A DNA stretch of 49,057 bases from assembly GCF_000721495.1 (NCBI RefSeq), contig NZ_JOHY01000084.1, positions 1 through 49,057 on the forward strand, written 5' to 3'. The stretch is from Streptomyces sp. NRRL F-5123 (lineage in GTDB: Bacteria; Actinomycetota; Actinomycetes; Streptomycetales; Streptomycetaceae). The translations under genes and the position numbers were made by a program. Below, one piece after another: positions 9,510-48,902 of this stretch. Under the pieces are notes generated by a model. It was not told the origin of the DNA and ran no database searches. It saw nothing but the letters and a program-made list of their open reading frames with translations. Each line of letters starts with the position of its first letter. The stretch's first letter is position 1.

Positions 9510-9552
9510 ACCGCCGCCAGGCCCCTCACCGAACGGAAAGGACCGATCTCGG

Positions 9553-33085: not shown

Positions 33086-34923
33086 CGAAGGTCCCCCTCC
33101 TGGATGCGGTCGTCGAAGCCGGCGACGAAGCGCTCGGCCTGGAGGGTGAACATCCCGGCGTAGGAGCCGCCGAAGGCCATCAGTTCCTCATGGGTGCCGG
33201 ACTCGGTGATCCGGCCGCCGTCGAGCACCACGATGCGGTCGGCCTGCCGGACCGTGGACAGCCGGTGGGAGATCAGTACCACGCTGCTGCCGCCCCGGTG
33301 CGCGGCGAGCCGGGAGAAGACGTCGAACTCGGTGCGCACGTCCAGGTGCGCGGTCGGCTCGTCCAGCACCAGCAGCCGGGCTCCGCTGCGTACCGCGTAC
33401 AGCGCGCGGGCGAGCACCACCTGCTGCCACTGGCCGCCCGACAGGTCCACTCCGCCGGTACGCGAACGGGCCATCGGAGTGGCCCAGCCGTCGGGCAGCC
33501 GGGCCAGCACCTCGTCGAGCCCCGCGTCGCGGGCCGCGGCCTCGGCGCGGGCGAGGTCGGGGGCGGTGCCGTCGGCCTGCCCGAGCGTCACGTTGTCGGC
33601 GAGGGTGAGGTGGTAGCGGACGAAGTCCTGGAAGACGACGGAGACCCGGCGTCGCCAGGCGGCCGGCCCGAGTTCGGCGATGTCGGTGCCGTCAGCGGTG
33701 ATCCGGCCGGCGGTGGGTTCGTACAGCGAGGAGAGCAGCTTGATCAGGGTGGACTTGCCGGCGCCGTTGAGGCCGACGACGGCCAGCAGCTCGCCGGGGC
33801 GGATCTCCAGGTCCAGGCCCTGGAGGACCTTGCGTGCGGTGCCGGGATAGGCGAACTCCACCTGCTCGAAGCGGACCAGGGGCGCCTCCGCAGGCCGGCT
33901 CGCGGGGGTCGCACCGGGTGGGGCGGCGGGAGCCCGCAGCTGCTGTTCCAGCTTCCGGGCCGCGTGAAGAACCGGCAGGGCGCCCATGCTGTCGCGCCAG
34001 CCGTAGCTGTCGAGCGCGGTGAACACCGACCAGCCCGCCGCGAACACCGCGGTCTCGACCGCCACCGTCGTCCGGCTGTGGGCGGCGTCCAGAGCCACCG
34101 GGGCATAGGCCGCGGCCAGGCCCGCCACCGTCAGGGCGAGTCTGGTCCACTGCTGGTTGAGGTGGCGCACGGTCGCCGCCCACGCGGGGTCGAACATGCC
34201 GTGGATGTGCTGCTGCTCGCGCTGCAGTGCCCACTCGGCGAAGCCGAAGACACGCACCTCCTTCGCCTCCGCGGGCTTGGTGAGCACCTCCTGCCACATG
34301 TAGGCGCGGCGTCCGTGCGGGGTGCCGGCCTGCCACAGACGTATGAAGGCCTGGCCCTGCCGGTATCCGATGGACCGGGCTGCGACCGCGGCGAGAAGCA
34401 CGACCGGGACCAGCCACCAGGCGTAGCGGGCCAGTACCAGGCAGGAGGCGGTGATGCCCAGGACGCGGACGAAATCGCCGACCTGCGCCAGGGCGCCCTG
34501 GCCGGGAGTGCGTTCGGTCCAGTTGTCCGGGTCGGCGCGGGCCAGCCGGATCTGTTCCTGTACCTCGGGCCGCTCCAAGGCCCCGATGGTGGGGCTGCCT
34601 GCCGCGAGCCCGGCGATGCGCGCCCGGTGCGCACCGTCCATCCGGGTCTGGGCGACGAACCGCAGCGGCTCCGCCAGGGCATCGACGACATGCCCGGCGA
34701 GCAGTACCGCGCCGAAGGCGAGCAGGGGCTCCAGGGCGGCGGCGAAGACCTCACCGCTGCTGCCGGCACCGAGCCGCGAGACCAGCAAGGCCATGGTGAC
34801 CGCTGTGGCAGCGGGCACCATGGCCTCCACCACTGCGAGCAGGACGTAACCGACGAGCAGCGGACCGCCGGCGTCTCGCAGCGGCAGCAGAAGCATCCAC
34901 CGCTCACGAATAGTCAGACCCAC
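33082..34923 (-). CDS. ABC exporter half-transporter (TMD-NBD), partner A
   Basis: 613 residues, GTG start behind GGAGGGG. Six hydrophobic segments occupy residues ~20-320. The nucleotide-binding domain has Walker A VGLNGAGKST (~residue 395), signature LSGGQWQ, Walker B LLVLDEPTAH and H-loop LISHRLSTV, all canonical. It is the first gene of a two-gene operon. It lies 1.3 kb from the polyketide cluster and on the same strand as the SARP, so it may export the product, but the spacer and terminator context make that uncertain. Confidence 0.94.
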   Translation of the reverse strand: MGLTIRERWMLLLPLRDAGGPLLVGYVLLAVVEAMVPAATAVTMALLVSRLGAGSSGEVFAAALEPLLAFGAVLLAGHVVDALAEPLRFVAQTRMDGAHRARIAGLAAGSPTIGALERPEVQEQIRLARADPDNWTERTPGQGALAQVGDFVRVLGITASCLVLARYAWWLVPVVLLAAVAARSIGYRQGQAFIRLWQAGTPHGRRAYMWQEVLTKPAEAKEVRVFGFAEWALQREQQHIHGMFDPAWAATVRHLNQQWTRLALTVAGLAAAYAPVALDAAHSRTTVAVETAVFAAGWSVFTALDSYGWRDSMGALPVLHAARKLEQQLRAPAAPPGATPASRPAEAPLVRFEQVEFAYPGTARKVLQGLDLEIRPGELLAVVGLNGAGKSTLIKLLSSLYEPTAGRITADGTDIAELGPAAWRRRVSVVFQDFVRYHLTLADNVTLGQADGTAPDLARAEAAARDAGLDEVLARLPDGWATPMARSRTGGVDLSGGQWQQVVLARALYAVRSGARLLVLDEPTAHLDVRTEFDVFSRLAAHRGGSSVVLISHRLSTVRQADRIVVLDGGRITESGTHEELMAFGGSYAGMFTLQAERFVAGFDDRIQEGDLR

Positions 34924-36665: not shown

Positions 36666-36918
36666 GACGCGGCGGCGACGGGCGCTGCGCCGACGACGTC
36701 TGTGAAGGGCAGAGCCCCATCGGTGCAGACGAGGTCGGAGCCGCGGTCTCTGCGGAGCCAACCGACGGGAACGCCTGTTGCCGAAGGGAAGACTCGTATC
36801 GCCGAACCGGCGCAGGCCGAAACTTCTTGCAAGCCGCGTCAGAGTCCTACCTCCCGGCAGACACGCGCACCCGGCCACAACCACCCCTTGTCCAAAGACG
36901 ACAGCCCTGATGCACGAA

Positions 36919-37055
36919 GCATCCGGCGCCTCCGGTGGCCGACCGGTGGCCGGACGCCTCTGGACGACGCGATACGCGGCAGCACGGGCCAACGAGCCGG
37001 ATGTGCTCTGATCAGGCAGGACAGCATCAGGCAGCACGACCAGGCACCGCGTAGC
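36919..37055. repeat. ~137-bp direct repeat, copy 1 (left of the att core)
   Basis: Aligns almost without gaps with 48,765-48,902 (offset 11,846-11,847). Shared blocks include GTGGCCGGACGCCT, TGGACGACG and TCAGGCAG. It contains a GTGGCC doublet (36,935 and 36,946, 11-bp period). It ends 15 bp before the tRNA-Thr fragment, the position of an integrase arm region next to an attachment core. Confidence 0.7.
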
Positions 37056-37070
37056 ACGAACTCTTACGGT

Positions 37071-37115
37071 CTCGTAATGCGTAGGTCTCGGGTTCGAATC
37101 CCGAAGGCGGCTCCA
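37071..37115 (+). other. tRNA-Thr(CGU) 3' fragment, probable attachment-site core
   Basis: Reads from the anticodon loop (CTCGTAA, anticodon CGT) through anticodon-stem 3' strand TGCGT, variable loop AGGTC, a complete T arm (TCGGG-TTCGAAT-CCCGA), acceptor 3' strand AGGCGGC, discriminator T and CCA. Bases upstream (CTTACGGT) do not supply the partner stem, D arm or acceptor 5' strand, so this is not a functional tRNA. A break at the anticodon loop with the 3' part kept is the classic att product of tyrosine-recombinase elements that insert in tRNA genes. Confidence 0.85.
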
Positions 37116-37447: not shown

Positions 37448-37774
37448 TCAGTGCGGCAGATCCGGGGCGCGGGCTCTATCTTGGGCTGCGCCCGGCCCGT
37501 CCCAGCCGTGGGCTGTGGGCATGGTTGTCGGTAGGCAAGAGGGGGAGGTCAGGGTCGGGACGCAGGCTGAGGGTGTCGGGGTGGGGCGGTTTGGCGGGTG
37601 CGCTGCCGGTGTCACGTGAGGGGCGCTTCCGCTTCCATTTGCCGAGGGGATGAGGAGATTGCCCATCACCTCGACTGCAGCGCCGCTGGTGAGCAGCGCT
37701 ACGGCCAGTGCGGTCAGGCCTGCGGAGGCACGCAGGGCGCGGGGCGTTGAGAAACGCGGGTCGGCGTAGGTCAT
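37448..37774 (-). CDS. Small single-pass membrane protein, end of the vWA/PP2C operon
   Basis: 108 residues; its ATG shares one base with the TGA of the vWA gene (TGATG), so it is coupled. A polar N-terminus (residues 1-14) precedes a hydrophobic helix (about 15-40, LTALAVALLTSGAAVEV). The rest is a Pro/Thr/Ser-rich tail with two cysteines eight residues apart (CVPTLTSPSC), which could form a disulfide if outside the cell. No family is recognised. Its position as the last coupled cistron suggests a membrane partner of the vWA protein. Confidence 0.65.
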   Translation of the reverse strand: MTYADPRFSTPRALRASAGLTALAVALLTSGAAVEVMGNLLIPSANGSGSAPHVTPAAHPPNRPTPTPSACVPTLTSPSCLPTTMPTAHGWDGPGAAQDRARAPDLPH

Positions 37775-38424
37775 CAGTCCACGAACTCCTGGGCGACCTG
37801 GACGTATTCGAAGCCGGTGACATTGGTGGCGATCTCCATGTGACCGCTCCTCGACGAGGCGATCAGGGTGTTGAGCAGGCCGGAGATCGCTCCGCTCAGC
37901 GCCGTCTCGGTGTCCGAACCGTCGGCGATGAACAGGGCCTTGGTCGCCACTTTTTCCAGCACTGCGCGGTTGGCGCCGCCGAAGCCGTAGGCGATCACGT
38001 GGGGGTGGCGCGGCCACTTCCTGTCCACCAGCGTGCGGAAGGAGTTCTGCCAGTGTGCGTCCGTCGGACTGCCGTCGGTGAGGAAGAAGACGGTCGGTCG
38101 CAGCACACCGAAGTTCTGCGACCGCAGGTCACGGACATCCTGCTCGATGCACTGCCGCACCCGGTCGAAGGTCTTGCCGTACTCCGTGCGCCCGCCGCAG
38201 ATCACCTCGGGCATGGCCGGCACCTGCTCCATGTCCGACATCGGGATCACCACGTGCACGTCGGTGGAGAAGGCGACCACGGACACTCGGGCGAACTCCG
38301 AGACGCGAGGATTCACCGCCAGGTTGTAGTGCAGACGGGCGAGGGTCGCGTTGAGCACCGCTTCGTGCGGCTTCATCGACGAGGACGCGTCGATCACCAC
38401 ATAGGTGGGCAGGCAGTCTGACAT
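37774..38424 (-). CDS. TerY-like von Willebrand factor A protein
   Basis: 216 residues forming a single vWA domain. The metal-ion-dependent adhesion site is intact: DASSS (D12, S14, S16), a Thr in GGRTEYGKTF near residue 80, and TDGSPTD near residue 118. It follows the kinase-like gene after 15 nt. Stand-alone vWA proteins encoded with a PP2C phosphatase and a kinase form the TerY-P triad described in tellurite/stress-linked and conflict-linked loci. In that scheme the vWA protein is a scaffold that binds metal and a partner. Partners here would be the neighbouring PP2C and kinase (inference). Confidence 0.9.
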   Translation of the reverse strand: MSDCLPTYVVIDASSSMKPHEAVLNATLARLHYNLAVNPRVSEFARVSVVAFSTDVHVVIPMSDMEQVPAMPEVICGGRTEYGKTFDRVRQCIEQDVRDLRSQNFGVLRPTVFFLTDGSPTDAHWQNSFRTLVDRKWPRHPHVIAYGFGGANRAVLEKVATKALFIADGSDTETALSGAISGLLNTLIASSRSGHMEIATNVTGFEYVQVAQEFVD

Positions 38425-38439
38425 GGGTGCACCTCTGAG

Positions 38440-39585
38440 TCAGTGGTGGGCGGCGAGGACGAGGATCACGATCGCGGCCAGGATGAGGACGAGAACCCAC
38501 CCCTCTTGCGTGGTGTCCTCGGGCTTGGATGTCTTGCCGGTGGGCTTCGGCACGGGTTTCTTCTTCTCGGCCCGCTCGGTGCTGGTGGGGGCCTGCACGA
38601 TCGGGGCCAGTGGCGGTAGTTCGGTGCGGGTCGGACGGGGCATGGCCCTGAGATAGGGGCCGCCGTTGAGGGCTTGGCGTAACTGGGCCGCTGAGGGCCG
38701 CTGTTCGCGGTCGGTCGCGAGCAGCATGTCCAGCAGGACCTCCGAAGCTGCGGGCTGCTCCCCCCAGGGGGAGCCGGCGATGGTGTGGAAGACGCGGGCA
38801 TCGCGCTGGCCCGTCATGCATTTGGCGACGAGCAGTCCGAGCCGGTAGCGGTCGGTGTACTTGTCCGCGTCGGTGCCCTGCGGGGTGAGCGGGTCGGCCC
38901 AGTTCGGCTGGTGGAGGTCGGGCATCTTCTCGGGTTGGCAGCCGTCGACGTCAATGAGGTAGACGGAGTGCTGGTCCGGGCTCCAGAAGGCGTTGGAGAA
39001 CGACCAGTCCGAGTAGACCAGGCCCAAGGTCTCCAGGATCGCGGCGAGTTCGGTGAGACGGCGGCAGGCGGCGAGCCTGCCCTTCGCGCCTGGGCTCGGC
39101 AGCCCGATCCCCCGGATCGAGTCGTCGGACTTCGCCAGCCAGTCGACCTCCACGAAGCGGCGCTCGCTGAAGGTGCCGCGCCGCAGCTCGGAGCGGTAGT
39201 GCTCGGGTGCCACCGGGATCACGCAGCCGACGGCCGGGTTGCCGGGCTCGTGGATCCGGGCCGTGGGCCAGCACGTCCCGGTGTAAAGGGCGGCACGGTC
39301 CGCCTCCGGCAGGGTGCCGGGGGCCGAGATCAGCAGGTCGAGCCGAGAGGCGTCGTCCGGGTGCTGGTCCTGCCGGTAGAGCTTGGCCAGCCAGCCCGGA
39401 TGGTCCGTCAGCGGCTTCACGGCGACTGCCTGGCCGTTGTGCTCAGAGATCGACTCGCCGAGCGGTCCGAGATCGCCGATGCTCACCTTCCGCGGCAATG
39501 TCCAGCCGCATGGATCGGCTGCCGGACCGCCGCCGTTGGCACTGCCTTTGCCACCGGCTCCGTCGGTGAGATCGGGTGCTGTCAT
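38440..39585 (-). CDS. Divergent protein kinase with a C-terminal membrane anchor (TerY-P triad kinase)
   Basis: 381 residues from ATG 39,585, which overlaps the PP2C stop (ATGA); an upstream in-frame start is less likely. The kinase fold is divergent: probable ATP lysine K68 in WLAKLYRQ, catalytic loop YSDWSFSN (191-198) in place of HRDxKxxN with Asp and Asn kept, and DVDG (212-215) in place of DFG. Residues ~290-350 are a Pro/Lys-rich linker and ~358-378 a transmembrane helix, with almost nothing beyond it, so the protein is tail-anchored with its kinase domain in the cytoplasm. Activity is plausible because the metal and catalytic aspartates survive. Confidence 0.85.
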   Translation of the reverse strand: MTAPDLTDGAGGKGSANGGGPAADPCGWTLPRKVSIGDLGPLGESISEHNGQAVAVKPLTDHPGWLAKLYRQDQHPDDASRLDLLISAPGTLPEADRAALYTGTCWPTARIHEPGNPAVGCVIPVAPEHYRSELRRGTFSERRFVEVDWLAKSDDSIRGIGLPSPGAKGRLAACRRLTELAAILETLGLVYSDWSFSNAFWSPDQHSVYLIDVDGCQPEKMPDLHQPNWADPLTPQGTDADKYTDRYRLGLLVAKCMTGQRDARVFHTIAGSPWGEQPAASEVLLDMLLATDREQRPSAAQLRQALNGGPYLRAMPRPTRTELPPLAPIVQAPTSTERAEKKKPVPKPTGKTSKPEDTTQEGWVLVLILAAIVILVLAAHH

Positions 39586-40775
39586 GTCCGTGCTCCGTTC
39601 CACACCACGACCGCGGTGCGGTCGTCAAGGCACTGCGGCGCGTCGAAGCCGACGTCGGCGATGAGCCGCGTTGCAGGGACCGGCAGACGCCAGGCATTCG
39701 CGAAGTACGTGTTGACGTTGCCTTCCGGGTTTGCCCACGCGTCGCCGATCCCGTCCGTGACCAGGGCGAGGGCGGCGCCGGGAGGCAGCGTGACGTAGTG
39801 GCCCCTGGCCAGTTGCGGAGTGTCCGGCAACTGCCCGGTGACCTCGTTCGAGACCACCGCCGACGTGCGGTCCTTCGGCTCGCCGGACGAGAACAGCCAC
39901 AGCGGGCCGCGCGGGTCGAGCGTCCAGGCCGAGCTGTCGCCGAGCCACGAGACCCAGGCCCTCGCGATGCCGTTCGCGTCCGGTTCGGCGAACACCGCGG
40001 TGATCAGCACGGTGGCCACGTGCGAGGTGCCGACGCCGCGTCCGGCGGCGTGCGCGGCGACAGATTCCGCGATCCGGCTGTACAGGCTCTTGATGTCGAG
40101 CCCGTCAAAGCCCACTGCTTCCAACTGCTCACGCAGCAGGGTGACGGCCTGGCTGGAGGCGGTGGTGGCGCCGGCGTCGGACCAGGCCGCGCTGGACAGG
40201 CCGTCGGCCACGGCCACGATCGCGTACCGGCTGTCCCGGCTCCGCCCGATCCGGTAGGAATCCTGCCGCGGTTCGGCGGGCTGGCCGCAGCGGTGGCCGG
40301 GCCCGACGACGGACGCCGCGCGGATGCTGAAGGCGCCGACCACGGCCTCGTCGGCGGCGATCCCGTTCTGCACCGTGCGCTCCGGCAGCAGCCACGGGTA
40401 GCCCTGGGCGCGGGCGCCCTCGCCGAAACGAGGAACGCTCAGGTCGGTCGGCCGCTCGCGCAGGAACGGCCGGGGGGCCGCGGGCCGGGCCTGCGGCGGC
40501 GCCGCTGCCGGTACGGCCGGGACCGGCGGGTTGGGCCTGGGCTCCGGTTCGGGGCGGTCCCGGTGCCGGGCGGGCGTCGCGGCGGCTCCGTACCCCAGCG
40601 TCGCCGCCGTGCCGACGACACCCACTGCGGCGAGGGCGAACGCGTTCACCAGCCGGCCATAGTGCTCGTGCGGCGTGCTGACCTCGACGAAGGCTCCGAC
40701 GACGACGGCCACGAGCAGCACCGCCCGCACCCACCCGTCCATGAGGCCGCCTTGCCGGCTGTCGGCCCGCCTCAC
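39582..40775 (-). CDS. Membrane-anchored PP2C-type protein phosphatase
   Basis: 397 residues from GTG 40,775, which overlaps the preceding stop (GTGA); ATG 40,742 is the alternative. Two hydrophobic helices (about 16-32 and 43-62) form a hairpin anchor, followed by a Pro/Ala-rich linker to ~110. The PP2C core has RQDSY (D172), ADGLSS (190-195), LGDSSAW, VTDGIGDAW and DDRTAVVVW, so the metal-binding aspartates look intact. It is translationally coupled to the kinase gene downstream, as expected for an opposing phosphatase/kinase pair with the vWA protein. Confidence 0.92.
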   Translation of the reverse strand: MRRADSRQGGLMDGWVRAVLLVAVVVGAFVEVSTPHEHYGRLVNAFALAAVGVVGTAATLGYGAAATPARHRDRPEPEPRPNPPVPAVPAAAPPQARPAAPRPFLRERPTDLSVPRFGEGARAQGYPWLLPERTVQNGIAADEAVVGAFSIRAASVVGPGHRCGQPAEPRQDSYRIGRSRDSRYAIVAVADGLSSAAWSDAGATTASSQAVTLLREQLEAVGFDGLDIKSLYSRIAESVAAHAAGRGVGTSHVATVLITAVFAEPDANGIARAWVSWLGDSSAWTLDPRGPLWLFSSGEPKDRTSAVVSNEVTGQLPDTPQLARGHYVTLPPGAALALVTDGIGDAWANPEGNVNTYFANAWRLPVPATRLIADVGFDAPQCLDDRTAVVVWNGART

Positions 40776-41188
40776 GAGCGCGCCCCGGAACCGCGGGAGT
40801 CCGGCCCGGAAGCAAAGTGCTGACTACCGTGCTGCACCGCGAACACCTCACCCGAGTGGGTCGCGGAATTGACCTGGATCTGGACGTCCGGCCTTTCCGG
40901 GGTGCGCAGCGCCGCCAGCGCCATGACGTCCCCGGCAAGAGCCGGGTTCCGGTCGAGCAGCTGGGACAGCGCCTCGGCCCAGTAGCCCACGGCTGCGCCG
41001 TCGACCGCCCCCCTGTGCGCGGTCGACGGCTGATCGAGTGCGGCGGACAGCTCGTTGCGCCGACTGCTGCGAGCTCGCGCCAGGATGTCGCTCATCAGCC
41101 TCTTCGCCTCGTGCCAGAGGTCGGTGCCCATGGCGGCGACCAGGGTGGCGGCGCCGCTCACGGCGATTTCCGCGAGTTCTTCGTTCAT
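40772..41188 (-). CDS. Small operon protein carrying the 'VFAVQHG' module
   Basis: 138 residues, ATG overlapping the cyclase-like stop (ATGA) and its own stop overlapping the PP2C start. Residues 1-90 are helical (LWHEAKRLMSDILARARSSR and so on), like a small regulatory domain. Residues ~100-138 are a short beta-like segment with GEVFAVQHGSQH and GPD. A near copy of this segment (GSVFAVEHGTMH...GPS) is found in the 77-residue protein at 45,405 in the divergent operon. No known family is recognised. Coupling to both neighbours makes it an integral part of the operon. Confidence 0.7.
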   Translation of the reverse strand: MNEELAEIAVSGAATLVAAMGTDLWHEAKRLMSDILARARSSRRNELSAALDQPSTAHRGAVDGAAVGYWAEALSQLLDRNPALAGDVMALAALRTPERPDVQIQVNSATHSGEVFAVQHGSQHFASGPDSRGSGARS

Positions 41189-41937
41189 CGCTGCGTACCC
41201 CGGTCGTTGTGGCGGACGTACTGGTTGCCGCGGAGGACGGCGAAGGCTGTGCTGTTTCCCGAGGCCTGGACGATCTGTTCCACGTTCCGCCGCCCGGGTT
41301 CTGCAGGCATTTCGCCGGCGTGGGATTCCCCGCCGGAATCGGCGCGCGGCCCTACGGGGCTGCCCGGGTACCAGAGCCAGCCCTGCGCGGCGTACTTCTT
41401 GACCCGGACGTCTGCTGCTGTGAAGGCGTCGGCGTCGAGCCCCTCGTAGCCGTGACCGACCGCCTCCTCGTAGAAGTGCTGCGAGAGGATCACGGCCACC
41501 GGCGTACCGGTGGTGCCGGCGAGGGCCGCGTTCCGCAGCGGTGCGGAGTCGAGCAGCCGGGCCAGCGCTTCGAAGGGGGCACCGGAGACGGTGCCTTCCG
41601 GGTCGATCCGGATCTCCCCCGCGTGCACCGCCGCCCGCACCCGCAGTTGGGCGTCCTGGCGGGCCTGCCGGTTGTGCCCGCGGATCCGCGTGCCCAGTTC
41701 GGGCAGCAGCGGGTGCAGCAGCCTGGCCTTGGACAGTCCGGCAGGGGCGACGAGTTGGCAGCCGTCGCCCGTGTCGACGTAGGTGAAGTCCGCGGCGTCC
41801 AGGTCCGCGAGACCGAGGGAGTCGGACAACGCGGAACGCAGAACCCTGCGGATCTCCTGCAGCCGCTGCTCGCCGCGGCCCGCGGAGTCCGCGATGTCGC
41901 ACGCCAGCAGCGCCCGGTATTCATACCTCGGATTCAC
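41185..41937 (-). CDS. Class III nucleotidyl-cyclase-like protein
   Basis: About 250 residues from GTG 41,937 (GGAGGG closely upstream; an ATG at 41,976 is possible). The class III cyclase layout is visible: the first metal Asp in LLACDIADS (D14), the hairpin YVDTGDG (D58), then RAAVHAGEI and a helix ending ALARLL where cyclases have VNxAARL. Both metal-binding aspartates are present, but the Asn of the transition-state motif is lost. It may still cyclise a nucleotide, or act as a nucleotide-binding sensor. It is the first gene of the six-gene operon and is divergent from a CRP/FNR-type gene, which suggests a cyclic-nucleotide circuit (inference). Confidence 0.75.
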   Translation of the reverse strand: MNPRYEYRALLACDIADSAGRGEQRLQEIRRVLRSALSDSLGLADLDAADFTYVDTGDGCQLVAPAGLSKARLLHPLLPELGTRIRGHNRQARQDAQLRVRAAVHAGEIRIDPEGTVSGAPFEALARLLDSAPLRNAALAGTTGTPVAVILSQHFYEEAVGHGYEGLDADAFTAADVRVKKYAAQGWLWYPGSPVGPRADSGGESHAGEMPAEPGRRNVEQIVQASGNSTAFAVLRGNQYVRHNDRGTQR

Positions 41938-42110
41938 AATCCCTCCGCGATCACGACGGGGCCGAAATTCGCGCACCGATTCGCCGACTTCCCGGTTCTC
42001 CGGTGCCGTTCCCGATGGTTGACGGGATCGTAGAGGAGGGGTCCCGGCGGAGAACCGCTACTAATACCGCTTGTGCCGCTTCGGGCGGACGAGGAAGAGA
42101 GGTACGGCCG
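41938..42110. promoter_or_regulatory. Divergent promoter region, cyclase-like operon / CRP-type gene
   Basis: 173-bp spacer that must drive both operons. It contains TTGACG at ~42,017 and a TAATAC hexamer at ~42,064, but their spacing is not a textbook promoter. No clear TGTGA-N6-TCACA site is visible. The CRP-type gene has AGAGAGG 8 nt before its ATG. Confidence 0.4.
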
Positions 42111-42869
42111 ATGAGCAACACACCGGTTCGCCGGACCGCGTCCTACTGGCCGCCGACCGGGCTGCTGGGCCGGGTCGACGAGGCCGACCGCGCAATCCTG
42201 CTCGGGCTCGGCCACCGTGTGGTCTACCCGGCCGGCCAGATCGCCATCCGGGAGGCCGACACCTCGGACTTCGCGCTGCTCCTGCTCGGCGGCACGGTGA
42301 AGGTCACCGCGCACGCACAGGACGGCCGCGAGGCGCTGCTGGCCGTGCGGATGGCCGGGGATCTGGTGGGGGAACTCGCCGGAATCGACGGTCAGCCGCG
42401 CGTCGGCACCGTGACCGCCTGCGGCAGGGTGCTGGCCCGCTACATCCTGCGCTCCGAACTGCTGGAGTGCACAAGGCAGCACCCTGCCGTAGGGCAGGCG
42501 ATCGGGGCGAGCGTGGTGGCCAAGCTGCGCACGGCAACCGGCCGGATCGTCGACTTCACCGGCTGCGACGTGCTCGGGCGGCTCGCCAGGATCCTGTACC
42601 ACCTGGCCGTCACCTACCGGCTTCCCGGCCGTCGAGACGCCCAGCTTCCGCTGTCGCAACCGGAGATGGCCACCCTGGTCGGTGCTGCCGAGTCGTCGAT
42701 CCACAAGGCGCTGCGCGCGCTGCGGGCGTCGGGCGTGATCGTGACCGGCTACCGCAGGATCACCATCCTCGACCTCGAACACCTCGCCCGGATCGCCGCC
42801 GAGGCCGCCCCGCCGGGGGGCTTCGCAGCCGTGCCGCCGGATCGCCGGCGGACTTCGCCAATCACGTAG
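42111..42869 (+). CDS. CRP/FNR-family transcriptional regulator
   Basis: 252 residues. Residues ~15-130 form the cyclic-nucleotide-binding beta barrel. The phosphate-binding cassette reads GELAGIDGQPRVGTV, keeping the Glu and the phosphate-binding Arg of CRP proteins. A long dimer helix follows (~130-160), then a winged helix with the recognition region LSQPEMATLVGAAESSIHKA at ~185-205. It is divergent from the cyclase-like gene and upstream of the STAND-like ATPase on the same strand. It may respond to the product of the cyclase-like protein and control one or both operons (inference). Confidence 0.92.
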   Translation: MSNTPVRRTASYWPPTGLLGRVDEADRAILLGLGHRVVYPAGQIAIREADTSDFALLLLGGTVKVTAHAQDGREALLAVRMAGDLVGELAGIDGQPRVGTVTACGRVLARYILRSELLECTRQHPAVGQAIGASVVAKLRTATGRIVDFTGCDVLGRLARILYHLAVTYRLPGRRDAQLPLSQPEMATLVGAAESSIHKALRALRASGVIVTGYRRITILDLEHLARIAAEAAPPGGFAAVPPDRRRTSPIT

Positions 42870-42951
42870 AAGCACCGGGTTCGCGCGACGAGCCGGTGCC
42901 AGCCTGACCGGGCGCCGGGGATCCGCGCGTGGGAGAAAACGAGGAAGCAAG

Positions 42952-45372
42952 ATGGCAGACAACAGCGGAGCTCAGGACGCATCCGGCCCGGTCCGGGCAG
43001 ACAACGTGTCCGGAATGATGATCGTGGGCAGCGGAAACACCGTCAACCACCTCGCACTCAACCTCAACGCCGAGTACGGCTCGACCGTCACCGTGCACGC
43101 CGGACCGCTGCCCGCTCCGGTCAAGCGCCAGCCGATCTCCCAGCTCCCGCGCTCCGCCGCCGATCCGCTGATCGGACGCGACGAGGACCTGCGGGTGCTG
43201 CAGGAAGCCGTCCGAGCAGGCAAGTTGGTGCAGATCTGGGGCGCGTCCGGCATCGGCAAGAGTGTGCTGCTGCGCCACCTCGCCCGCACCTTGCCGCGCG
43301 GGGCCGACGGGGTGGCCTACATCGAAGCCGGCGGCCGCACGGCTGACGACATCGCCCAGGCGATCTTCGACATCAGCTTCGACGCCCCGAACTACAAGCC
43401 GTCGCCCGAGGTGCTGAAGGAGCACCTCAAGCAACTGCGGCTGCGGATCTACCTGGACGACACCGGACTCGACGGGACGGACCTACGCCGGCTCCTCGAC
43501 CTGGCCCAGCACTCCACCTTCGTCTTCACCTCGCAGCAGCTGTCCGCGGTCGACGGCGTCCAGGCGGTCCAGCTCAAAGGGCTCACGGCCCCGGCAGCGG
43601 CGAAACTGGTGGCGACGCTGCTCGGCCGCGAACTGCGGACCGACGAGGCGTCGACCGTGGACGCGCTGTGCGACGTGGTGGACGGCAGCCCGCTCCAGCT
43701 GCGGCGCATCGCCTCGTCGGCAGCGGGCGGAGCGGGCCTGCCGGGTGTCACCCAGCTCCCCGAGCTGATTCCCGCGCTGGTGAGGAGGCTTGAGCCGCGG
43801 GAGCACGACCTGATGCACCTGCTCGGTTCGCTGTCCGGCGCCGAGCTGGCCGCCCGGCATCTCAACGATCTGCTCGGACATCCGGACAGCGACGCGGTCG
43901 CCGACAGCCTGGTGCGCCGCGGCCTGCTGCTCGCCTCGGAGACCGGCTACAGCTGTCCGCCGGATGTCGCCGAGTACGTGCTGACGAGCCGGGGGACGGA
44001 GTTCCCCGCCGACCGGCTCTGCCGGGAGCTCACCGAGTGGGTCCGGGCCAGGGGCACCACCCCGGACGACGTCGCGGCACACTTCCAGGCCCTGGACGTC
44101 GCGGTGGTGCGGGCGGAGCAGAGGGGACACCCGGAGCTCGGCGTGGCGCTGGTCCGCGCCGCTTCGCCCAAGCTGGCGCTCTCGCGGCAGTTCGACGCGT
44201 GGGGTTGCCTGCTCGGAGCCGGCTGGTCGGCGGCGAGGAGCGCGGAGGACACGCAGGGCGAGGAGTTCTTCGTGCGCGAGGCCGACACCCGGAAGCGGGC
44301 GATCGGCCGGGCTGCACTGAAGGCGGGCTTGGTAGTCGAGGCGGGTGTGCTGGTGCACGAACTCCTCGCGCTGCGGGCCCATTCGGCCGTGCAACAGGTC
44401 GCCCACACGGCGTCGACCGTCGCGCATCCGGCCTCCGCAATCGTCCAGGGGCACGCCGCGGCTCACACGTCGACCGCCGCGCATACCGCGGCCCACGTGT
44501 CCAACGCCGCGCATACCGCGGTCCACACGTCCGCCGCTGCGGCTCACCTGCCCACGGCCGCCGCCAGGCCGGTGTTCGACCTCTCCCAGCCCGCCCAGCA
44601 CGCGCAGGCCGCGACCCATGTGGCCAATGCGCACTCCACTGCTGCACAGATCCGGCCGCGGGTCGATCTTTCGCACGCGCACACGTCTCTCTCCCCGTCG
44701 TCGCATGCCGCAACCACGACCACGACGGCGACCGGCGGAGCCCACACGGCGGCCACCACCGTTGCGGTGGGTGCCAAGGGCGGAATGTCGGCACTCGCCG
44801 TCGCCTGCACCTTCGGCTTCGTAGCTGTGCTCGGCGTGGGTGTCACGGCGTACGAGAACCACCGGCCGGACCCGTCCCCCGTCGCCGCACCGACCGTCGT
44901 CGACACGCTGGACCAGGAATACGTCGGTACGCAGGACCCGGCCTACGACACCCCGGATTCCGTCGATCCCGTCTGCGCGACCCTGATCTCGGACCTGCCG
45001 CCGGGGATCGGGCAGTTCAGCGCCGACGCCTCCAGCGCGTCCGACGCGATGGCCTCGTACAACAGCGCCATGGACGACTACAACGCGGGCCAGGCGTACG
45101 CCCCTCCCGACCCCAGCACGGTGTTTTCCCAGGTCAGCACCGTCATCAACGACCTGAGCGCCATCGACTCCACGTTGCAGGAGGCCATGGCACAGGCCCA
45201 GGACGATTCCCTGAAAACGGACCTCGACAGCATGCTGACCCCTGTCCAGCAGATGGAGAGCCTGTACCAGTCGTACGCGGACTCCCCGAGCGGTACCGAC
45301 TTCGACACGTCGAGCCAGGGCGTTGCGATGCTCTCGGCCGCCGACAGCCTCGACACCGACTGCGGCGAATGA
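42952..45372 (+). CDS. Membrane-spanning STAND-like P-loop ATPase with His/Ala/Thr repeat linker
   Basis: 806 residues, ATG behind GAGGAAGC. Residues ~15-50 carry a short beta module (DNVSGMMIVGSGNTVNHLAL). The P-loop GASGIGKS is at 97-104 and Walker B RIYLDD at 165-170, followed by an ARC/winged-helix-like helical part to ~480; this is the STAND/NACHT-type layout. Residues ~480-605 are low-complexity, His/Ala/Thr-rich, with a ten-residue repeat. A transmembrane helix lies at ~611-633. The C-terminal ~170 residues have two cysteines (~676 and near the end) and a helical region, probably outside the cell. STAND ATPases are usually cytoplasmic switches; the membrane anchor and outer domain are unusual. 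The 77-residue partner gene follows after 32 nt. Confidence 0.85.
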   Translation: MADNSGAQDASGPVRADNVSGMMIVGSGNTVNHLALNLNAEYGSTVTVHAGPLPAPVKRQPISQLPRSAADPLIGRDEDLRVLQEAVRAGKLVQIWGASGIGKSVLLRHLARTLPRGADGVAYIEAGGRTADDIAQAIFDISFDAPNYKPSPEVLKEHLKQLRLRIYLDDTGLDGTDLRRLLDLAQHSTFVFTSQQLSAVDGVQAVQLKGLTAPAAAKLVATLLGRELRTDEASTVDALCDVVDGSPLQLRRIASSAAGGAGLPGVTQLPELIPALVRRLEPREHDLMHLLGSLSGAELAARHLNDLLGHPDSDAVADSLVRRGLLLASETGYSCPPDVAEYVLTSRGTEFPADRLCRELTEWVRARGTTPDDVAAHFQALDVAVVRAEQRGHPELGVALVRAASPKLALSRQFDAWGCLLGAGWSAARSAEDTQGEEFFVREADTRKRAIGRAALKAGLVVEAGVLVHELLALRAHSAVQQVAHTASTVAHPASAIVQGHAAAHTSTAAHTAAHVSNAAHTAVHTSAAAAHLPTAAARPVFDLSQPAQHAQAATHVANAHSTAAQIRPRVDLSHAHTSLSPSSHAATTTTTATGGAHTAATTVAVGAKGGMSALAVACTFGFVAVLGVGVTAYENHRPDPSPVAAPTVVDTLDQEYVGTQDPAYDTPDSVDPVCATLISDLPPGIGQFSADASSASDAMASYNSAMDDYNAGQAYAPPDPSTVFSQVSTVINDLSAIDSTLQEAMAQAQDDSLKTDLDSMLTPVQQMESLYQSYADSPSGTDFDTSSQGVAMLSAADSLDTDCGE
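44461..44550. repeat. 30-bp in-frame tandem repeat inside the ATPase gene
   Basis: Three 30-bp units (44,461-44,490; 44,491-44,520; 44,521-44,550) encode AHTSTAAHTA, AHVSNAAHTA and VHTSAAAAHL. The unit length is a multiple of three, so copy-number change would keep the frame. A fourth, more diverged unit may lie at 44,431-44,460. Confidence 0.8.
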
Positions 45373-45404
45373 CCTCCCTGCAACCCGCCCACGAGAGGCC
45401 GAAC

Positions 45405-45638
45405 ATGCCTACGGAACCCGGACACCGGGACATCAACGTCGGAGACGTCTCCGGCACCTTCGTCGTCGGCGACGACAACCACGTGACGAGCACGACGCAT
45501 TGCCCCGGGCATTCCCAACCGCACCAGCAGAACTCCGCGGAGGGCCAGGGGTCCGTCTTCGCCGTCGAACACGGGACCATGCACGTCACCTACAACTCCG
45601 GACCCTCCCGCGAAATCGCCGGTGACGCCGGGGACTGA
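45405..45638 (+). CDS. 77-residue protein combining modules shared with the ATPase and the 138-residue protein
   Basis: ATG behind GAGAGG, 32 nt after the ATPase gene. Residues 8-32 (INVGDVSGTFVVGDDNHV) resemble the N-terminal beta module of the ATPase (DNVSGMMIVGSGNTV). Residues 47-68 (GSVFAVEHGTMHVTYNSGPS) resemble the C-terminal segment of the small protein at 40,772 (GEVFAVQHGSQH). A Cys/His/Gln-rich stretch lies between. Short 'VSGxxVVGDxNxV' peptides are frequent in actinomycete signalling and conflict loci. No enzymatic motif. Possibly an adaptor bridging the two operons' products (inference). Confidence 0.7.
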   Translation: MPTEPGHRDINVGDVSGTFVVGDDNHVTSTTHCPGHSQPHQQNSAEGQGSVFAVEHGTMHVTYNSGPSREIAGDAGD

Positions 45639-45700
45639 GCAACGCCGCGTGCCTCGGCCGACGTTCGGCCGGGGCACGCAGCGCCGTGCTCCGCTCAGTC
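45633..45700. terminator. Nested bidirectional terminator between convergent genes
   Basis: Outer arms GACTGAGC (45,633-45,640) and GCTCAGTC (45,693-45,700) enclose an inner 14-bp stem (45,647-45,660 with 45,666-45,679, one G-T pair). The outer arms contain the stop codons of both convergent genes, so they overlap the ends of the 77-residue and FHA genes. Confidence 0.75.
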
Positions 45701-46489
45701 CCGTTCGGCCAGCAGTTCCAGGTCCTGGGTGTTCAGTGTCGCAGTCTTCAGCAGTTCCCTGATCAGGTTGACGCTGAGCACCGAGCCGACCGGTTCGCCG
45801 ACCTCGTCGCGCAGCAGCCCGCGCACGCCCCGCCGGTGCAGCCGCTCGCGTACGTCCTCGACCGTGTTCGCGACCGACTTGTAGGTCCAGGACTTGGCGG
45901 CGTAAGGCGAGGCGTTGGCCAGACGGGCAGTCTCTTCCCAGGTCAGCGGGAGTGGGAAGGTGTCGTGGCCCTCCAAATAGCGCCGGGCGAGCGCGGTGAG
46001 CACCAGTCGCTCCTGGGGGGAGAGTTCGTAGACTGTCTCGGGATCCACGGTCTTCGCACTGCTCGTGGCGCGCGGGTGCCGGTCGTCCTGGTCGACGACG
46101 CGGACCTCCACCAGGTGCGAACGCTGCTTGGACGAGTTGATCACCAGCGGGGTGTACCCGGATGCGATGATCCGCTTGTGGCCGGTGAGCATAAGCGCTC
46201 CGTCGGGCAGTTCGATCGGCAGGCTGCCGGTATTGGCCAGCCACCACTCGCCGCCCACACCCGTGCAGGTGAATACGCCGTGCCGGCGGCTGACGGTCGG
46301 GTCGTCGACACCGACTGCCACATGCACGTCCTCGCGGTCGCGCCCGAACAGCAGCGTGTACCGGCGCGGCGGCACGGCGTACCCGCCTTCCGGACCCAGC
46401 ACGAAGATCGTGCCGGGCGGCGCCGAGGGCACCCTGCCGGAGGGACTCCCCGGCGGCAGTATCTGGGGTGGGAAGTTTCCGGACTTCAT
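45695..46489 (-). CDS. FHA-domain protein with a C-terminal helix-turn-helix-like region
   Basis: 264 residues from ATG 46,489 with GGAGG 9 nt upstream. Residues ~25-120 form the forkhead-associated domain: YTLLFGRDREDVHVAV followed by TVSRRHGVF, giving the Gly-Arg and Ser-x-x-His residues that contact phosphothreonine. Residues ~150-240 (LSPQERLVLTALARRYL, then LTWEETARLAN and VEDVRERL) look like a winged or sigma-4-like helical domain. It is divergent from the transmembrane Ser/Thr kinase at 46,691, the likely source of the phosphothreonine it reads. It may link kinase activity to transcription. Confidence 0.88.
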   Translation of the reverse strand: MKSGNFPPQILPPGSPSGRVPSAPPGTIFVLGPEGGYAVPPRRYTLLFGRDREDVHVAVGVDDPTVSRRHGVFTCTGVGGEWWLANTGSLPIELPDGALMLTGHKRIIASGYTPLVINSSKQRSHLVEVRVVDQDDRHPRATSSAKTVDPETVYELSPQERLVLTALARRYLEGHDTFPLPLTWEETARLANASPYAAKSWTYKSVANTVEDVRERLHRRGVRGLLRDEVGEPVGSVLSVNLIRELLKTATLNTQDLELLAERD

Positions 46490-46690
46490 TTCACAGACCT
46501 CCGGCTCGGGTCGCGCCAGTGTATGAGCGCACTGCGAGGACCGGTCCTCCCGCCGCATTCGGCGCGCGGATATCGGAAATGTGTGGGTCCTGTACGTCGG
46601 CCGCGCGCGTCCGCCGCCAACGCGTATCGTGTGGCCCCGGTTTGGGCGACGACATGCCCGCCGTGAGCGCGAGCAGCCGAGGAACCGCTG
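46490..46690. promoter_or_regulatory. Divergent promoter spacer, FHA gene / kinase gene
   Basis: 201 bp between divergent starts. No gene. TATCGT at ~46,624 is a possible -10 element for the kinase gene; no convincing -35 or operator dyad was seen. Confidence 0.35.
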
Positions 46691-48349
46691 ATGATGGACA
46701 GCACGATCGCCGAACAGCTCGGCCCGGACGATCCCCGGGAGATCGGCAGTTTCAACATCATCGGCCTGCTCGGCACGGGTGGCATGGGTGAGGTCTACCT
46801 CGGGGCGTCGGACAAGGGCTACGCCGCCGTCAAGCGCGTGCGGCCGCGGCTGGTCTCCAGCGAGCGCTTCGAGCGCGAGGTGGGCATTCTCTACCGCGTG
46901 CCGGTCGGGGTCGGGCCGCGGGTGTTGGCGAGCGACGGCACGGCCGAACGCCCCTGGTTCGCGGCCGAGTACATTCCCGGACTCACCGTGGACGAAGCGG
47001 TCCGGCTGCGCGGCACGCTGCCCGTCGAGGCGCTGTGGCTTCTGCTGGCTGAGGCAGCCGCCCAACTGCGCGCCGTGCACGCGCTCGACATCGTGCACCG
47101 CGACGTCAAGCCCGGCAACGTCATGCTGGTGCGCGACGGTGTGAGGCTGATCGACTTCGGCATCGCGCGCGCAGCGGACCAGACGAGGCTCACCAGGGGC
47201 GGCGGGGGTTACGGGACGCAGGGATTCTCGGCGCCGGAGCAGCAGACCGGGGACGAGGACGTGGACGCGCCGGCGGACGTCTACGCGCTCGGGGCGCTGC
47301 TGCTCTACGCGGCCTCGGGCCGCACGCCTGGGGCCGTCCCCGACGTCGAGCCGCTGCGCGCGGTGGACGCGAGCCTGGCCGCTGTGGTCGGGTCCTGCCT
47401 CACCGCCGCGCCTGAAGCCCGCCCCACCGCCGGCGAGGTGGTGGAAGCGGTCCGCGCGCACCCGTCCGTTCCGCCCCCGTCCTGGCCCTCCGAGGTCATG
47501 TCGCGCATCGCCTCGCGACGTGCCTTCGCCACGACGCCGGTCGGCAAGCTGGAGACGGTACCGCCGCCGAACCTGGCTGCGGGCCCCCCGGATGCCGCGG
47601 ACCCTCCGGGGTCGACGGAGGCCGGGACCCTGCCCACGATCCCCGTGTTACCCCGCCGCCCGCGCAGACGCCTGCTCCTGGCCGTCGTAGTGCTCGCTGT
47701 CGCTGCTGGCGCAGCGTTCCTGCTCATTCCGTCCGGACCCTCGCAGAAGGGCACCGCCCACTCACCCGGCAGATCACCGGCGACCGTCGAACCTGTGGCC
47801 GGTACGACGCGGGCGTCCTCCGCGAACCCGAGCCGTCCGGCCTCGCCCACCGCCGAGTCCGCGCCCCCGACCCTGACCCTGACCCCAGGCGTCCCGGTCG
47901 GCACGCACACGACCGCCCCGCCGGACGGCGCGCCCACCAAGCCGTCGGCCCCCGCCATTACCGCATCCACCGCAGTCGCCGCACGCCCCACCGCACGGCA
48001 GATCGCCGGGATCAGCGGCAACGAAGACCCGGACCAGGTCAAGGGTTCCGAAGCGGACACCAGCTGGGTCGGGAACGACGCCGCCTGCTCCGCCTGGCTG
48101 GACGACAACGGATCCGGCGAGCTCGCAGGCGTGCTCAACACCTCCCTGAGCCAGACCTGCAATGCCATGCTCTACCGCAGCGACGGCGTCGCGTACGGCT
48201 TCCATGCCTCCTGGGGCGCTGCGAAGACGAACTTCGTCTCGGACGTCGGCACCACGATGTGGATCTGCGTCTGGAACGCGAACGACGCGTCCGGCACGCA
48301 GTGCTCCGCCCGCTTCGCCATGCACGGCCACACCCCGGTGGAGGAGTGA
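46691..48349 (+). CDS. Transmembrane Ser/Thr protein kinase with a cysteine-bearing outer domain
   Basis: 552 residues (ATG 46,691 or 46,694). Kinase motifs are intact: GTGGMGEV (28-35), K48 in YAAVKRV, HRDVKPGN (136-143), DFG (155-157) and APEQQ. A juxtamembrane linker runs to ~325, a transmembrane helix spans ~326-348, then a Pro/Ser/Thr-rich stalk to ~435. The C-terminal ~115 residues carry four cysteines (AACSAW, SQTCNA, WICVW, TQCSARF), consistent with two disulfides in an exported domain. There are no PASTA repeats, so the outer domain is of an unrecognised sort. Pairs by position with the FHA gene. Confidence 0.92.
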   Translation: MMDSTIAEQLGPDDPREIGSFNIIGLLGTGGMGEVYLGASDKGYAAVKRVRPRLVSSERFEREVGILYRVPVGVGPRVLASDGTAERPWFAAEYIPGLTVDEAVRLRGTLPVEALWLLLAEAAAQLRAVHALDIVHRDVKPGNVMLVRDGVRLIDFGIARAADQTRLTRGGGGYGTQGFSAPEQQTGDEDVDAPADVYALGALLLYAASGRTPGAVPDVEPLRAVDASLAAVVGSCLTAAPEARPTAGEVVEAVRAHPSVPPPSWPSEVMSRIASRRAFATTPVGKLETVPPPNLAAGPPDAADPPGSTEAGTLPTIPVLPRRPRRRLLLAVVVLAVAAGAAFLLIPSGPSQKGTAHSPGRSPATVEPVAGTTRASSANPSRPASPTAESAPPTLTLTPGVPVGTHTTAPPDGAPTKPSAPAITASTAVAARPTARQIAGISGNEDPDQVKGSEADTSWVGNDAACSAWLDDNGSGELAGVLNTSLSQTCNAMLYRSDGVAYGFHASWGAAKTNFVSDVGTTMWICVWNANDASGTQCSARFAMHGHTPVEE

Positions 48350-48718: not shown

Positions 48719-48764
48719 CATAGCAGGCGCCTCCTGTAGAGGGGCGACAACCCCGGGGTGCGGG

Positions 48765-48902
48765 GCATCCGGTGTCTCCCGTGGCCAGTCCGTGGCCGGA
48801 CGCCTTTGGACGACGTAGTACGAGAGAGTATTCGGTTGACCGGCCACAGGCGCTGTGGTCAGGCAGAACGGCACCAGGCAGCATGACCCGGGGCTGCGTC
48901 CG
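48765..48902. repeat. ~137-bp direct repeat, copy 2 (right end of the signalling island)
   Basis: Diverged copy of 36,919-37,055, about two-thirds identical by eye and nearly gap-free. It includes the GTGGCC doublet at 48,781 and 48,792. Where copy 1 is followed by the tRNA-Thr fragment, this copy is not: no att-like 45-mer is seen to 49,057. The last ~150 bp hold no gene that I can support. Confidence 0.7.

What the first reader, a model, noticed from the sequence alone, without database searches (positions are those of the whole stretch)
37448..48349. Compact multi-layer signalling island built on a TerY-P-like triad
Eleven genes combine vWA + PP2C + divergent kinase (established TerY-P triad), a cyclase-like protein with a divergent CRP-type regulator, a membrane STAND-like ATPase, two small proteins with shared modules, and an FHA protein with a transmembrane kinase. 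Seen: gene order, overlaps, motifs. Known: the triad and STAND ATPases recur in stress and biological-conflict loci. Inferred: the set works as one envelope-spanning sensing and response system, possibly defence. No obvious nuclease or toxin effector was seen, which is itself unusual.
Basis: partly seen in the sequence, partly recalled or inferred. Interest (0 to 1): 0.85.

Follow-up and report, generated by a model that had tools for sequence, protein, structure and literature searches.

The report
Tagged-protein bacterial alarm circuit island
A mobile 11-gene block, kept in the same order in several soil-bacterium genera, seems to join a membrane alarm sensor, a second-messenger enzyme and a possible membrane-acting protein through short matching "stick-together" tags, one small protein carrying both kinds of tag.

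Summary
The 11 genes are real and form one unit. Of 20 close relatives in four genera, 19 keep the ten larger genes in order and orientation; one is cut within the phosphatase gene. In 297 Streptomycetaceae genomes, all 17 with the vWA orthologue have the FHA orthologue within about 10 kb. Flanking genes are not shared, so the unit appears mobile.

The cyclase, the 138-aa protein and a small protein end in one motif (A). The small protein's N-terminus and the ATPase's N-terminus share another (B). Matches have E 5.5e-5 to 1.3e-9; 68 controls gave nothing below 0.14. The small protein is two motifs on a linker: a predicted adaptor.

The 138-aa protein resembles "Bell" proteins of bacterial NLR/amyloid signalosomes; the cyclase has a class III fold. 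In 20 paralogous loci cyclase tails match their own neighbour better than mismatched partners (0 of 20,000 permutations).

Best reading: a membrane STAND sensor drives, by homotypic motif assembly, a cyclase (acting on a CRP regulator) and a Bell-like protein, under a phosphorylation layer. Amyloid formation, cyclase product, killing and defence are untested. The triad is TerY-P-like without the zinc ribbon.

The parts
37448..37774 (-). small protein (108 aa) with one hydrophobic segment, start overlaps vWA stop
   Evidence: segment by eye
37774..38424 (-). vWA protein (TerY-like), MIDAS D-x-S-x-S intact
   Evidence: Pfam VWA 3e-8; conservation
38440..39603 (-). divergent Ser/Thr kinase-like protein with C-terminal TM-like helix, no zinc ribbon
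   Evidence: YSDWSFSN and DVDG, and no CxxC, in 16 of 16 full-length reads (window plus 15 of 19 loci; 4 extractions failed); conservation
39582..40775 (-). PP2C phosphatase with N-terminal hydrophobic segment (by eye)
   Evidence: Pfam PP2C_2 7e-16
40772..41188 (-). s138: Bell-like helical domain (5 helices, residues 3-95) plus disordered tail with motif A
40814..40876 (-). motif A in s138 tail (residues 105-125)
41185..41937 (-). class III nucleotide-cyclase-fold protein, GTG start
41203..41271 (-). motif A in cyclase C-terminus
42051..42074 (-). 24-nt imperfect palindrome (8 of 12 half-positions) in the cyclase/CRP divergent promoter, candidate CRP site
   Evidence: exact pattern in 17 of 20 close loci plus window; 0 in 100 shuffles
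42111..42869 (+). CRP/FNR-family regulator (cNMP-binding plus HTH)
42952..45372 (+). STAND-like P-loop ATPase with one TM segment and C-terminal ectodomain with two cysteines
42991..43050 (+). motif B at ATPase N-terminus
45369..45638 (+). s2: two-motif adaptor (true start probably 45405, 77 aa)
45432..45497 (+). motif B in adaptor
45525..45596 (+). motif A in adaptor
45695..46489 (-). FHA-domain protein with C-terminal helical/HTH-like region (by eye)
   Evidence: Pfam FHA 1e-3; 18 of 19 genomes with a match at 84-100% identity
46536..46549 (.). perfect 14-bp palindrome in FHA/kinase divergent promoter
   Evidence: 12-nt core pattern in 16 of 20 close loci plus window; both strands in 10 of 20
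46691..48349 (+). Ser/Thr kinase of PknB/AfsK type with a hydrophobic TM-like segment (by eye)
   Evidence: Pfam Pkinase 8e-24; NCBIfam AfsK and PknB models below cut-off
37071..37111 (+). 41-nt exact match to the 3' part of tRNA-Thr(CGT), candidate attachment scar at island edge
36884..37052 (+). direct repeat, left copy
   Evidence: 72% over 93 nt, 74% over 136 columns
48730..48899 (+). direct repeat, right copy

Best explanation
A horizontally mobile 11-gene signalling cassette. A membrane STAND ATPase senses an envelope signal through its C-terminal ectodomain (inferred). On activation it oligomerises (inferred from STAND biology) and presents N-terminal motif B, which recruits the N-terminal motif B of the small adaptor s2 (motif match shown; binding inferred). 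The clustered C-terminal motif A of s2 then nucleates motif A on two outputs (match shown): a class III cyclase, whose cyclic nucleotide (product unknown) would activate the divergent CRP regulator that re-drives the locus, and a Bell-like helical protein that may act on the membrane (inferred). The vWA/PP2C/membrane-kinase triad and the FHA/TM-kinase pair set the threshold by phosphorylation (inferred). The motif contact is probably short beta-strand templating of the amyloid-signalosome kind (inferred).
For: One unit: 19 of 20 close loci with the ten larger genes colinear; 17 of 17 vWA genomes also have FHA, 297 genomes examined. Two motif classes: hhalign cyc-C/s138-C 4.7e-7, s138-C/s2-C 4.3e-6, cyc-C/s2-C 5.5e-5, s2-N/STAND-N 1.3e-9; six A-versus-B comparisons E>=0.29; 68 control comparisons E>=0.14. 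The adaptor is two conserved blocks and a variable P/Q linker in the 17 sequences aligned, window included. The wiring persists in diverged cores L042 and L071, where A and B appear changed together in the partners (by eye). Cyclase homologue P0228 carries a motif-B-like end in place of A (by eye). General rule: in 20 paralogous cyclase loci matched tail/downstream-N-terminus score 968 against a permutation maximum of 841, 0 of 20,000. Cyclase fold; Asp14, Asp58 and Arg127 invariant in 33 of 33 (metal and transition-state roles recalled). Bell-like family: a paralogue beside a protein with TPR_12 8e-7 and NB-ARC 5e-4 (under cut-off) whose N-terminal motif looks similar (L111), one fused to NB-ARC 2e-12 and TPR (L113), one sharing a motif with its neighbour (L108).
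Against: No motif was shown to bind or to form amyloid; the motif-B profile found no RHIM structure in PDB. STAND (B) and Bell-like protein (A) do not share a motif directly. Helix 1 of the Bell-like protein is only mildly hydrophobic (17-residue mean 0.8-1.9) and its model matches no solved fold. The cyclase lacks the purine-specifying Lys/Asp and has Glu for the transition-state Asn (alignment with 3mr7, E 0.06; roles recalled), so it may be inactive. Most island proteins are 65-90% identical across genera (STAND 47-65%, s2 51-75%), high for a fast-evolving defence system. Only 3 of 20 sampled Bell-like paralogue loci showed an NLR-type fusion or a similar motif in a neighbour.
Confidence: 0.55

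Rival explanations
1. The shared tags are ordinary beta-strand docking or co-assembly modules (a rung of a small beta-solenoid or a scaffold), giving a constitutive complex, not a templated switch. The locus is a stress-responsive transcription circuit without a killing output.
For: The motif-B profile's second hit is Antigen 43 (beta-helix fold recalled), E 9.3, not significant; the Bell-like helix is only mildly hydrophobic; no nuclease or toxin domain reached significance in Pfam or NCBIfam for the 10 proteins scanned; CRP is the only DNA-binding protein with a clear domain hit.
Against: The pairing logic (tag at effector C-terminus, tag at receptor N-terminus, adjacent genes) is that of published NLR amyloid pairs (PMC7889193, passages); a Bell-like paralogue is fused to NB-ARC-TPR.
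Confidence: 0.3
2. A phage-defence abortive-infection system: phage triggers the STAND ATPase, and the Bell-like protein kills the cell. The cyclase and CRP only boost expression.
For: Patchy (vWA orthologue in 17 of 297 genomes), unshared flanks, tRNA-Thr scar; Bell/BASS and TerY-P-like modules are linked with conflict systems in print (PMC7889193, PMC11090510, passages); the TM kinase matches PADLOC PD-T4-6 kinase models (best 9e-42) and CRP's cNMP domain matches Pycsar TIR effectors (1e-9).
Against: Those PADLOC matches are read here as general kinase and cNMP-domain similarity; the other eight proteins scanned have no or only weak (E>=9e-4) PADLOC hits; no defence-gene neighbourhood was looked for or established; sequence conservation is high.
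Confidence: 0.35
3. Three functionally separate modules (cyclase/CRP/STAND core, TerY-P-like triad, FHA/kinase pair) that merely travel together on one mobile cassette.
For: The five-gene core occurs in L042 and L071 without detected triad, FHA or TM kinase; no motif A or B on triad, FHA or kinase termini; FHA without vWA in G196.
Against: Strict order in 19 of 20 loci; PP2C start overlaps the Bell-like gene's stop; no vWA orthologue without FHA in 297 genomes.
Confidence: 0.25

Closest known systems
NLR/Bell bacterial amyloid signalosomes (BASS1-10)
   Same: Bell-like helical domain with C-terminal short motif; P-loop STAND/NLR-type protein with N-terminal short motif; adjacent genes; actinobacteria (PMC7889193, PMC8086366, passages)
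   Different: STAND and Bell-like motifs differ and are bridged by a two-motif adaptor; a nucleotide cyclase carries the effector-side motif; output includes a CRP regulator; STAND is membrane-anchored with an ectodomain
TerY-P triad
   Same: vWA, PP2C and Ser/Thr-like kinase in one operon
   Different: kinase has a C-terminal TM-like helix and no zinc ribbon; PP2C has an N-terminal hydrophobic segment (definition from PMC11090510, passages)
Pycsar / CBASS cyclic-nucleotide defence
   Same: class III cyclase fold plus a cNMP-binding protein beside it; CRP's cNMP domain is similar to PycTIR's
   Different: receiver is a CRP/HTH regulator, not a TIR or TM toxin (Pycsar effector types partly recalled); the cyclase shares a motif with a STAND-linked adaptor
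MoxR-vWA ternary and EAD-linked conflict systems (Kaur et al.)
   Same: multicellular actinobacteria, vWA, cNMP cyclase, STAND NTPase, modular coupling (PMC7159879, PMC8195603, passages)
   Different: no MoxR ATPase among the proteins scanned; coupling is by about 20-25-residue tags, not globular EAD or Death-like domains

Membership tests
TerY-P triad | TerY-like vWA protein | tested here: met
   Pfam VWA 3e-8, MIDAS residues conserved
TerY-P triad | PP2C phosphatase | tested here: met
   Pfam PP2C_2 7e-16
TerY-P triad | Ser/Thr kinase | tested here: inconclusive
   no Pfam hit; conserved YSDWSFSN and DVDG read as catalytic motifs; weak MkoA 0.005 and LanL 4e-4 hits
TerY-P triad | C-terminal zinc ribbon on the kinase | tested here: not met
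   no CxxC in 16 of 16 full-length reads; hydrophobic helix at the C-terminus
NLR/Bell amyloid signalosome (BASS) | same motif at effector C-terminus and receptor N-terminus of adjacent genes | tested here: not met
   STAND N-terminus does not match s138 tail (E 0.91) or cyclase tail (E 0.29); match only through s2. Direct matches do occur in paralogous cyclase/downstream pairs
NLR/Bell amyloid signalosome (BASS) | Bell domain: small alpha-helical bundle with hydrophobic helix | tested here: inconclusive
   5 helices, mild hydrophobicity; family members adjacent or fused to NB-ARC-type proteins; no Bell HMM available
NLR/Bell amyloid signalosome (BASS) | match to BASS1-10 profiles | not testable with these tools
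   profiles not held; the original paper not found under the DOI tried
NLR/Bell amyloid signalosome (BASS) | amyloid formation | not testable with these tools
   needs experiment
NLR/Bell amyloid signalosome (BASS) | NB-ARC or NACHT ATPase receptor | tested here: inconclusive
   P-loop and Walker B present; Pfam AAA_16/AAA_22 3e-6, nSTAND1 3e-4, NACHT 0.06
Pycsar | class III cyclase fold | tested here: met
Pycsar | toxic effector carrying the cNMP-binding domain | tested here: not met
   the cNMP-binding protein is a CRP/HTH regulator
MoxR-vWA ternary system | MoxR AAA+ ATPase partner | tested here: not met
   no MoxR-type family among 10 scanned island proteins at E<=1

The most novel reading that the evidence does not exclude
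A new class of amyloid-type signalosome in actinobacteria: a STAND/NLR-like receptor drives a nucleotide cyclase, not only a killer protein, through locus-specific tags, and a dedicated two-motif adaptor converts one tag into another. This links prion-like assembly to second-messenger signalling and a CRP transcription factor, and many cyclase/STAND-like pairs in these genomes use the same logic with their own tags.
Probability: 0.45. Interest if true: 0.88.

Novelty: new variant of a known kind. Interest (0 to 1): 0.77.

Why it matters
A 2021 review asks whether bacterial signalling amyloids act in pathways not dependent on NLRs and calls the biological role of these cascades a blind spot (PMC7889193, passages). 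This locus makes the second question directly testable and bears on the first: an enzyme output that can be assayed, a transcription factor with a candidate operator, and a tiny protein with both tags that can be deleted or mixed in vitro. It also gives a function hypothesis for a common family of unnamed actinobacterial cyclase-like proteins. No paper describing this gene set, a cyclase with such tags, or a two-tag adaptor appeared in the listings of searches; these cover open-licence PMC texts only, and the listings are capped.

Tried and rejected
Canonical TerY-P and direct Bell-NLR filing: rejected on tested features (zinc ribbon; no direct motif match). Pycsar filing: rejected, the cNMP-binding protein is CRP. 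RHIM homology of motif B: PDB searches with one sequence and a profile gave no RHIM hit, so RHIM likeness is by eye and recalled only. Solved-fold match for the Bell-like model: none significant; Pfam over 43 family members: no match better than E 0.009. Local alignment with Bell-like paralogue tails over whole loci: 20 loci, 2 skipped (L107, L113), of 18 only L108 rose above its null. That test excluded ORFs overlapping the query by more than 60 nt, which can drop an overlapping neighbour; the L111 motif similarity is by eye. Locus-wide test for cyclase tails: 11 loci tried; L042, L046 and L049 gave no cyclase under the gene filter; of 8 scored, 5 had p<=0.005, L050 p=0.045, L051 p=0.08, L047 p=0.89. 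Matched/mismatched test: 27 loci tried, 20 scored, 7 dropped for lack of a downstream ORF passing the filter; own tail ranked first or second among 20 in 11; L009 and L010 are motif-A loci whose next gene is the Bell-like one, so 18 are cyclase/other pairs; the loci are related, so the permutation figure is not an exact probability. Four of the five paralogous downstream proteins examined lack the canonical P-loop Lys, so not all are active ATPases. In one search the adaptor segments were cut out around the motif by pattern, a selection; cyclase, s138 and STAND termini were taken by fixed length. Flank comparison used ORFs of 120 aa or more with a GC filter, in up to about 2.7 kb left and 6.5 kb right. 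In one search the script stopped with an error after the ATPase table and two kinase lines; only its printed part is used. L043's ATPase and four kinase extractions (L054, L062, L067, L068) were faulty and are not used. The FHA search scored at most 8 candidates per genome and the repeat search 40 of 78. tRNA-Thr link: 2 of 21 loci (window, L073). The tRNA finder gave no complete tRNA in the window.


Full report
WHAT IS THERE. The window is contig C84 of an 8.8-Mb genome; the window is 73% GC. Two genomes of its genus have contigs of the lengths of Actinacidiphila oryziradicis and A. yanglinensis records, so the host is taken to be an Actinacidiphila. Between 37448 and 48349 lie eleven genes: a leftward operon (cyclase-like, s138, PP2C, kinase, vWA, small TM protein), a rightward set (CRP, STAND-like ATPase, s2), and a divergent FHA/TM-kinase pair.

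ONE UNIT, AND MOBILE. A scan of named genomes with the s138 alignment returned 22 loci. Twenty are close relatives in Streptomyces, Kitasatospora, Streptacidiphilus and Actinacidiphila. Nineteen of these have the ten larger genes in the same order and orientation; the small TM gene was detected in 16 of 20. L065 breaks off within PP2C and continues into DNA with a recombinase-like ORF (ORF type by eye). Of 297 Streptomycetaceae genomes, 17 hold the vWA orthologue and 19 the FHA orthologue. All 17 vWA genomes have FHA on the same contig, the pair spanning about 9-10 kb; the two others are G196 (FHA 89% identical, no vWA) and G170 (FHA only 52% identical). In the 20 loci no flanking ORF family is shared by more than three, and the island tree groups A. 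oryziradicis with Streptomyces (support 0.90). In the window the left edge carries a 41-nt exact match to the 3' part of tRNA-Thr(CGT), and in L073 the island abuts an intact tRNA-Thr(CGT). A 74% direct repeat, with two matches found in the genome, brackets the window's island. The unit therefore looks like a mobile cassette; the tRNA link rests on 2 of 21 loci.

THE WIRING. Alignment of 17 sequences shows s2 to be two conserved blocks (B, consensus GDIHTGDVSGTFVVGDNNRVTNTT; A, NSAEDQAAVFAVEHGTMHVTYN, with minor wobble) on a variable P/Q linker. Block A recurs at the C-terminus of s138 and of the cyclase; block B at the N-terminus of the ATPase. Profile comparison over 21 loci gave E 4.7e-7, 4.3e-6 and 5.5e-5 for the A pairs and 1.3e-9 for the B pair; six A/B cross comparisons gave E>=0.29, and 68 control comparisons (17 other termini, four profiles) gave E>=0.14. 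In the diverged core loci L042 and L071, where triad and FHA/kinase were not detected, the adaptor is again bipartite, and both motifs look changed together in the partners. A cyclase homologue, P0228, carries a B-like end in place of A (by eye).

A GENERAL RULE. Most paralogous cyclases in the genus end in short Gly-rich, beta-type tails by eye, though not all: L025, L027 and L030 end in acidic or His-rich tails and L033's longer ORF in none. In 20 loci with a readable downstream gene, the tail resembles the N-terminus of its own neighbour more than those of other loci: mean 48.4 against 31.4, sum 968 against a permutation maximum of 841 in 20,000. Seven of 27 loci were dropped, own rank was first or second in 11 of 20, and relatedness makes the figure approximate. 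Five neighbours were examined (758-829 aa): three have weak STAND/AAA hits (nSTAND3 4e-4 and 3e-3, AAA_22 2e-4), and one has a canonical P-loop. So tag-matched cyclase/STAND-like pairs appear to be a class, of which this island is the elaborate form.

REGULATION. The cyclase/CRP intergenic region holds a 24-nt imperfect palindrome, present exactly in 17 of 20 close loci and the window, and not found in L071, L042 or L043. The FHA/kinase intergenic region holds a perfect 14-bp palindrome in the window; its 12-nt core pattern is in 16 of 20 close loci.

MECHANISM AND LIMITS. I infer: ectodomain signal, STAND oligomerisation, B-to-B recruitment of s2, A-to-A recruitment of cyclase and Bell-like protein, cyclic-nucleotide/CRP feed-forward, and a phosphorylation layer that sets the threshold. 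Shown: gene set, synteny, motif identities, cyclase fold and conserved residues. Inferred: every binding event, amyloid nature, cyclase product, membrane action and biological role. The high conservation and lack of a recognised toxin leave a developmental or envelope-stress role as likely as phage defence.

LITERATURE. Passages only: PMC8086366, PMC12261475, PMC7889193, PMC9815663, PMC7159879, PMC8195603, PMC11090510, PMC12881547. The original BASS/Bell paper was not found under the DOI tried; its content is taken from those passages. The listings of seven searches showed no description of this gene set.

Noticed in passing
window 48-13602: Two giant ORFs (3153 and 1349 aa) that look like PKS/NRPS genes; Rfam ASpks antisense matches at 4968-5042 and 10606-10680. 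Left of the island, not analysed.
   Followed up: no
window 31292-34923: Two consecutive ABC-exporter-like genes on the minus strand (by sequence, not scanned).
   Followed up: no
window 36884-37111 and 48730-48899: Direct repeat brackets the island, and a 3' fragment of tRNA-Thr(CGT) lies at the left edge; another fragment and an intact copy lie on contig C10.
   Followed up: partly
L073 13826-13900: Intact tRNA-Thr(CGT) beside the island end in Streptomyces sp. A 4/2.
   Followed up: partly
L065 after about 11300: Island cut within PP2C; the following DNA has a serine-recombinase-like ORF (by eye).
   Followed up: partly
L072 8915-10465: PNP_UDP phosphorylase and the s138-type domain with a motif-A-like tail in one ORF.
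   Followed up: partly
L113 5022-7439: s138-type domain fused directly to NB-ARC-TPR.
   Followed up: partly
L029 (cyclase tail): Cyclase tail ARLIQVGRDYIPG, with an IQVG core like the RHIM tetrad (likeness recalled), matches the next gene's N-terminal VTQVGRDY.
   Followed up: partly
L025, L027, L030: Cyclase paralogues with long acidic or His/Asp-rich C-terminal tails instead of a beta-type tag.
   Followed up: no
P0228: Cyclase homologue whose C-terminus looks like motif B rather than A: a possible tag swap.
   Followed up: no
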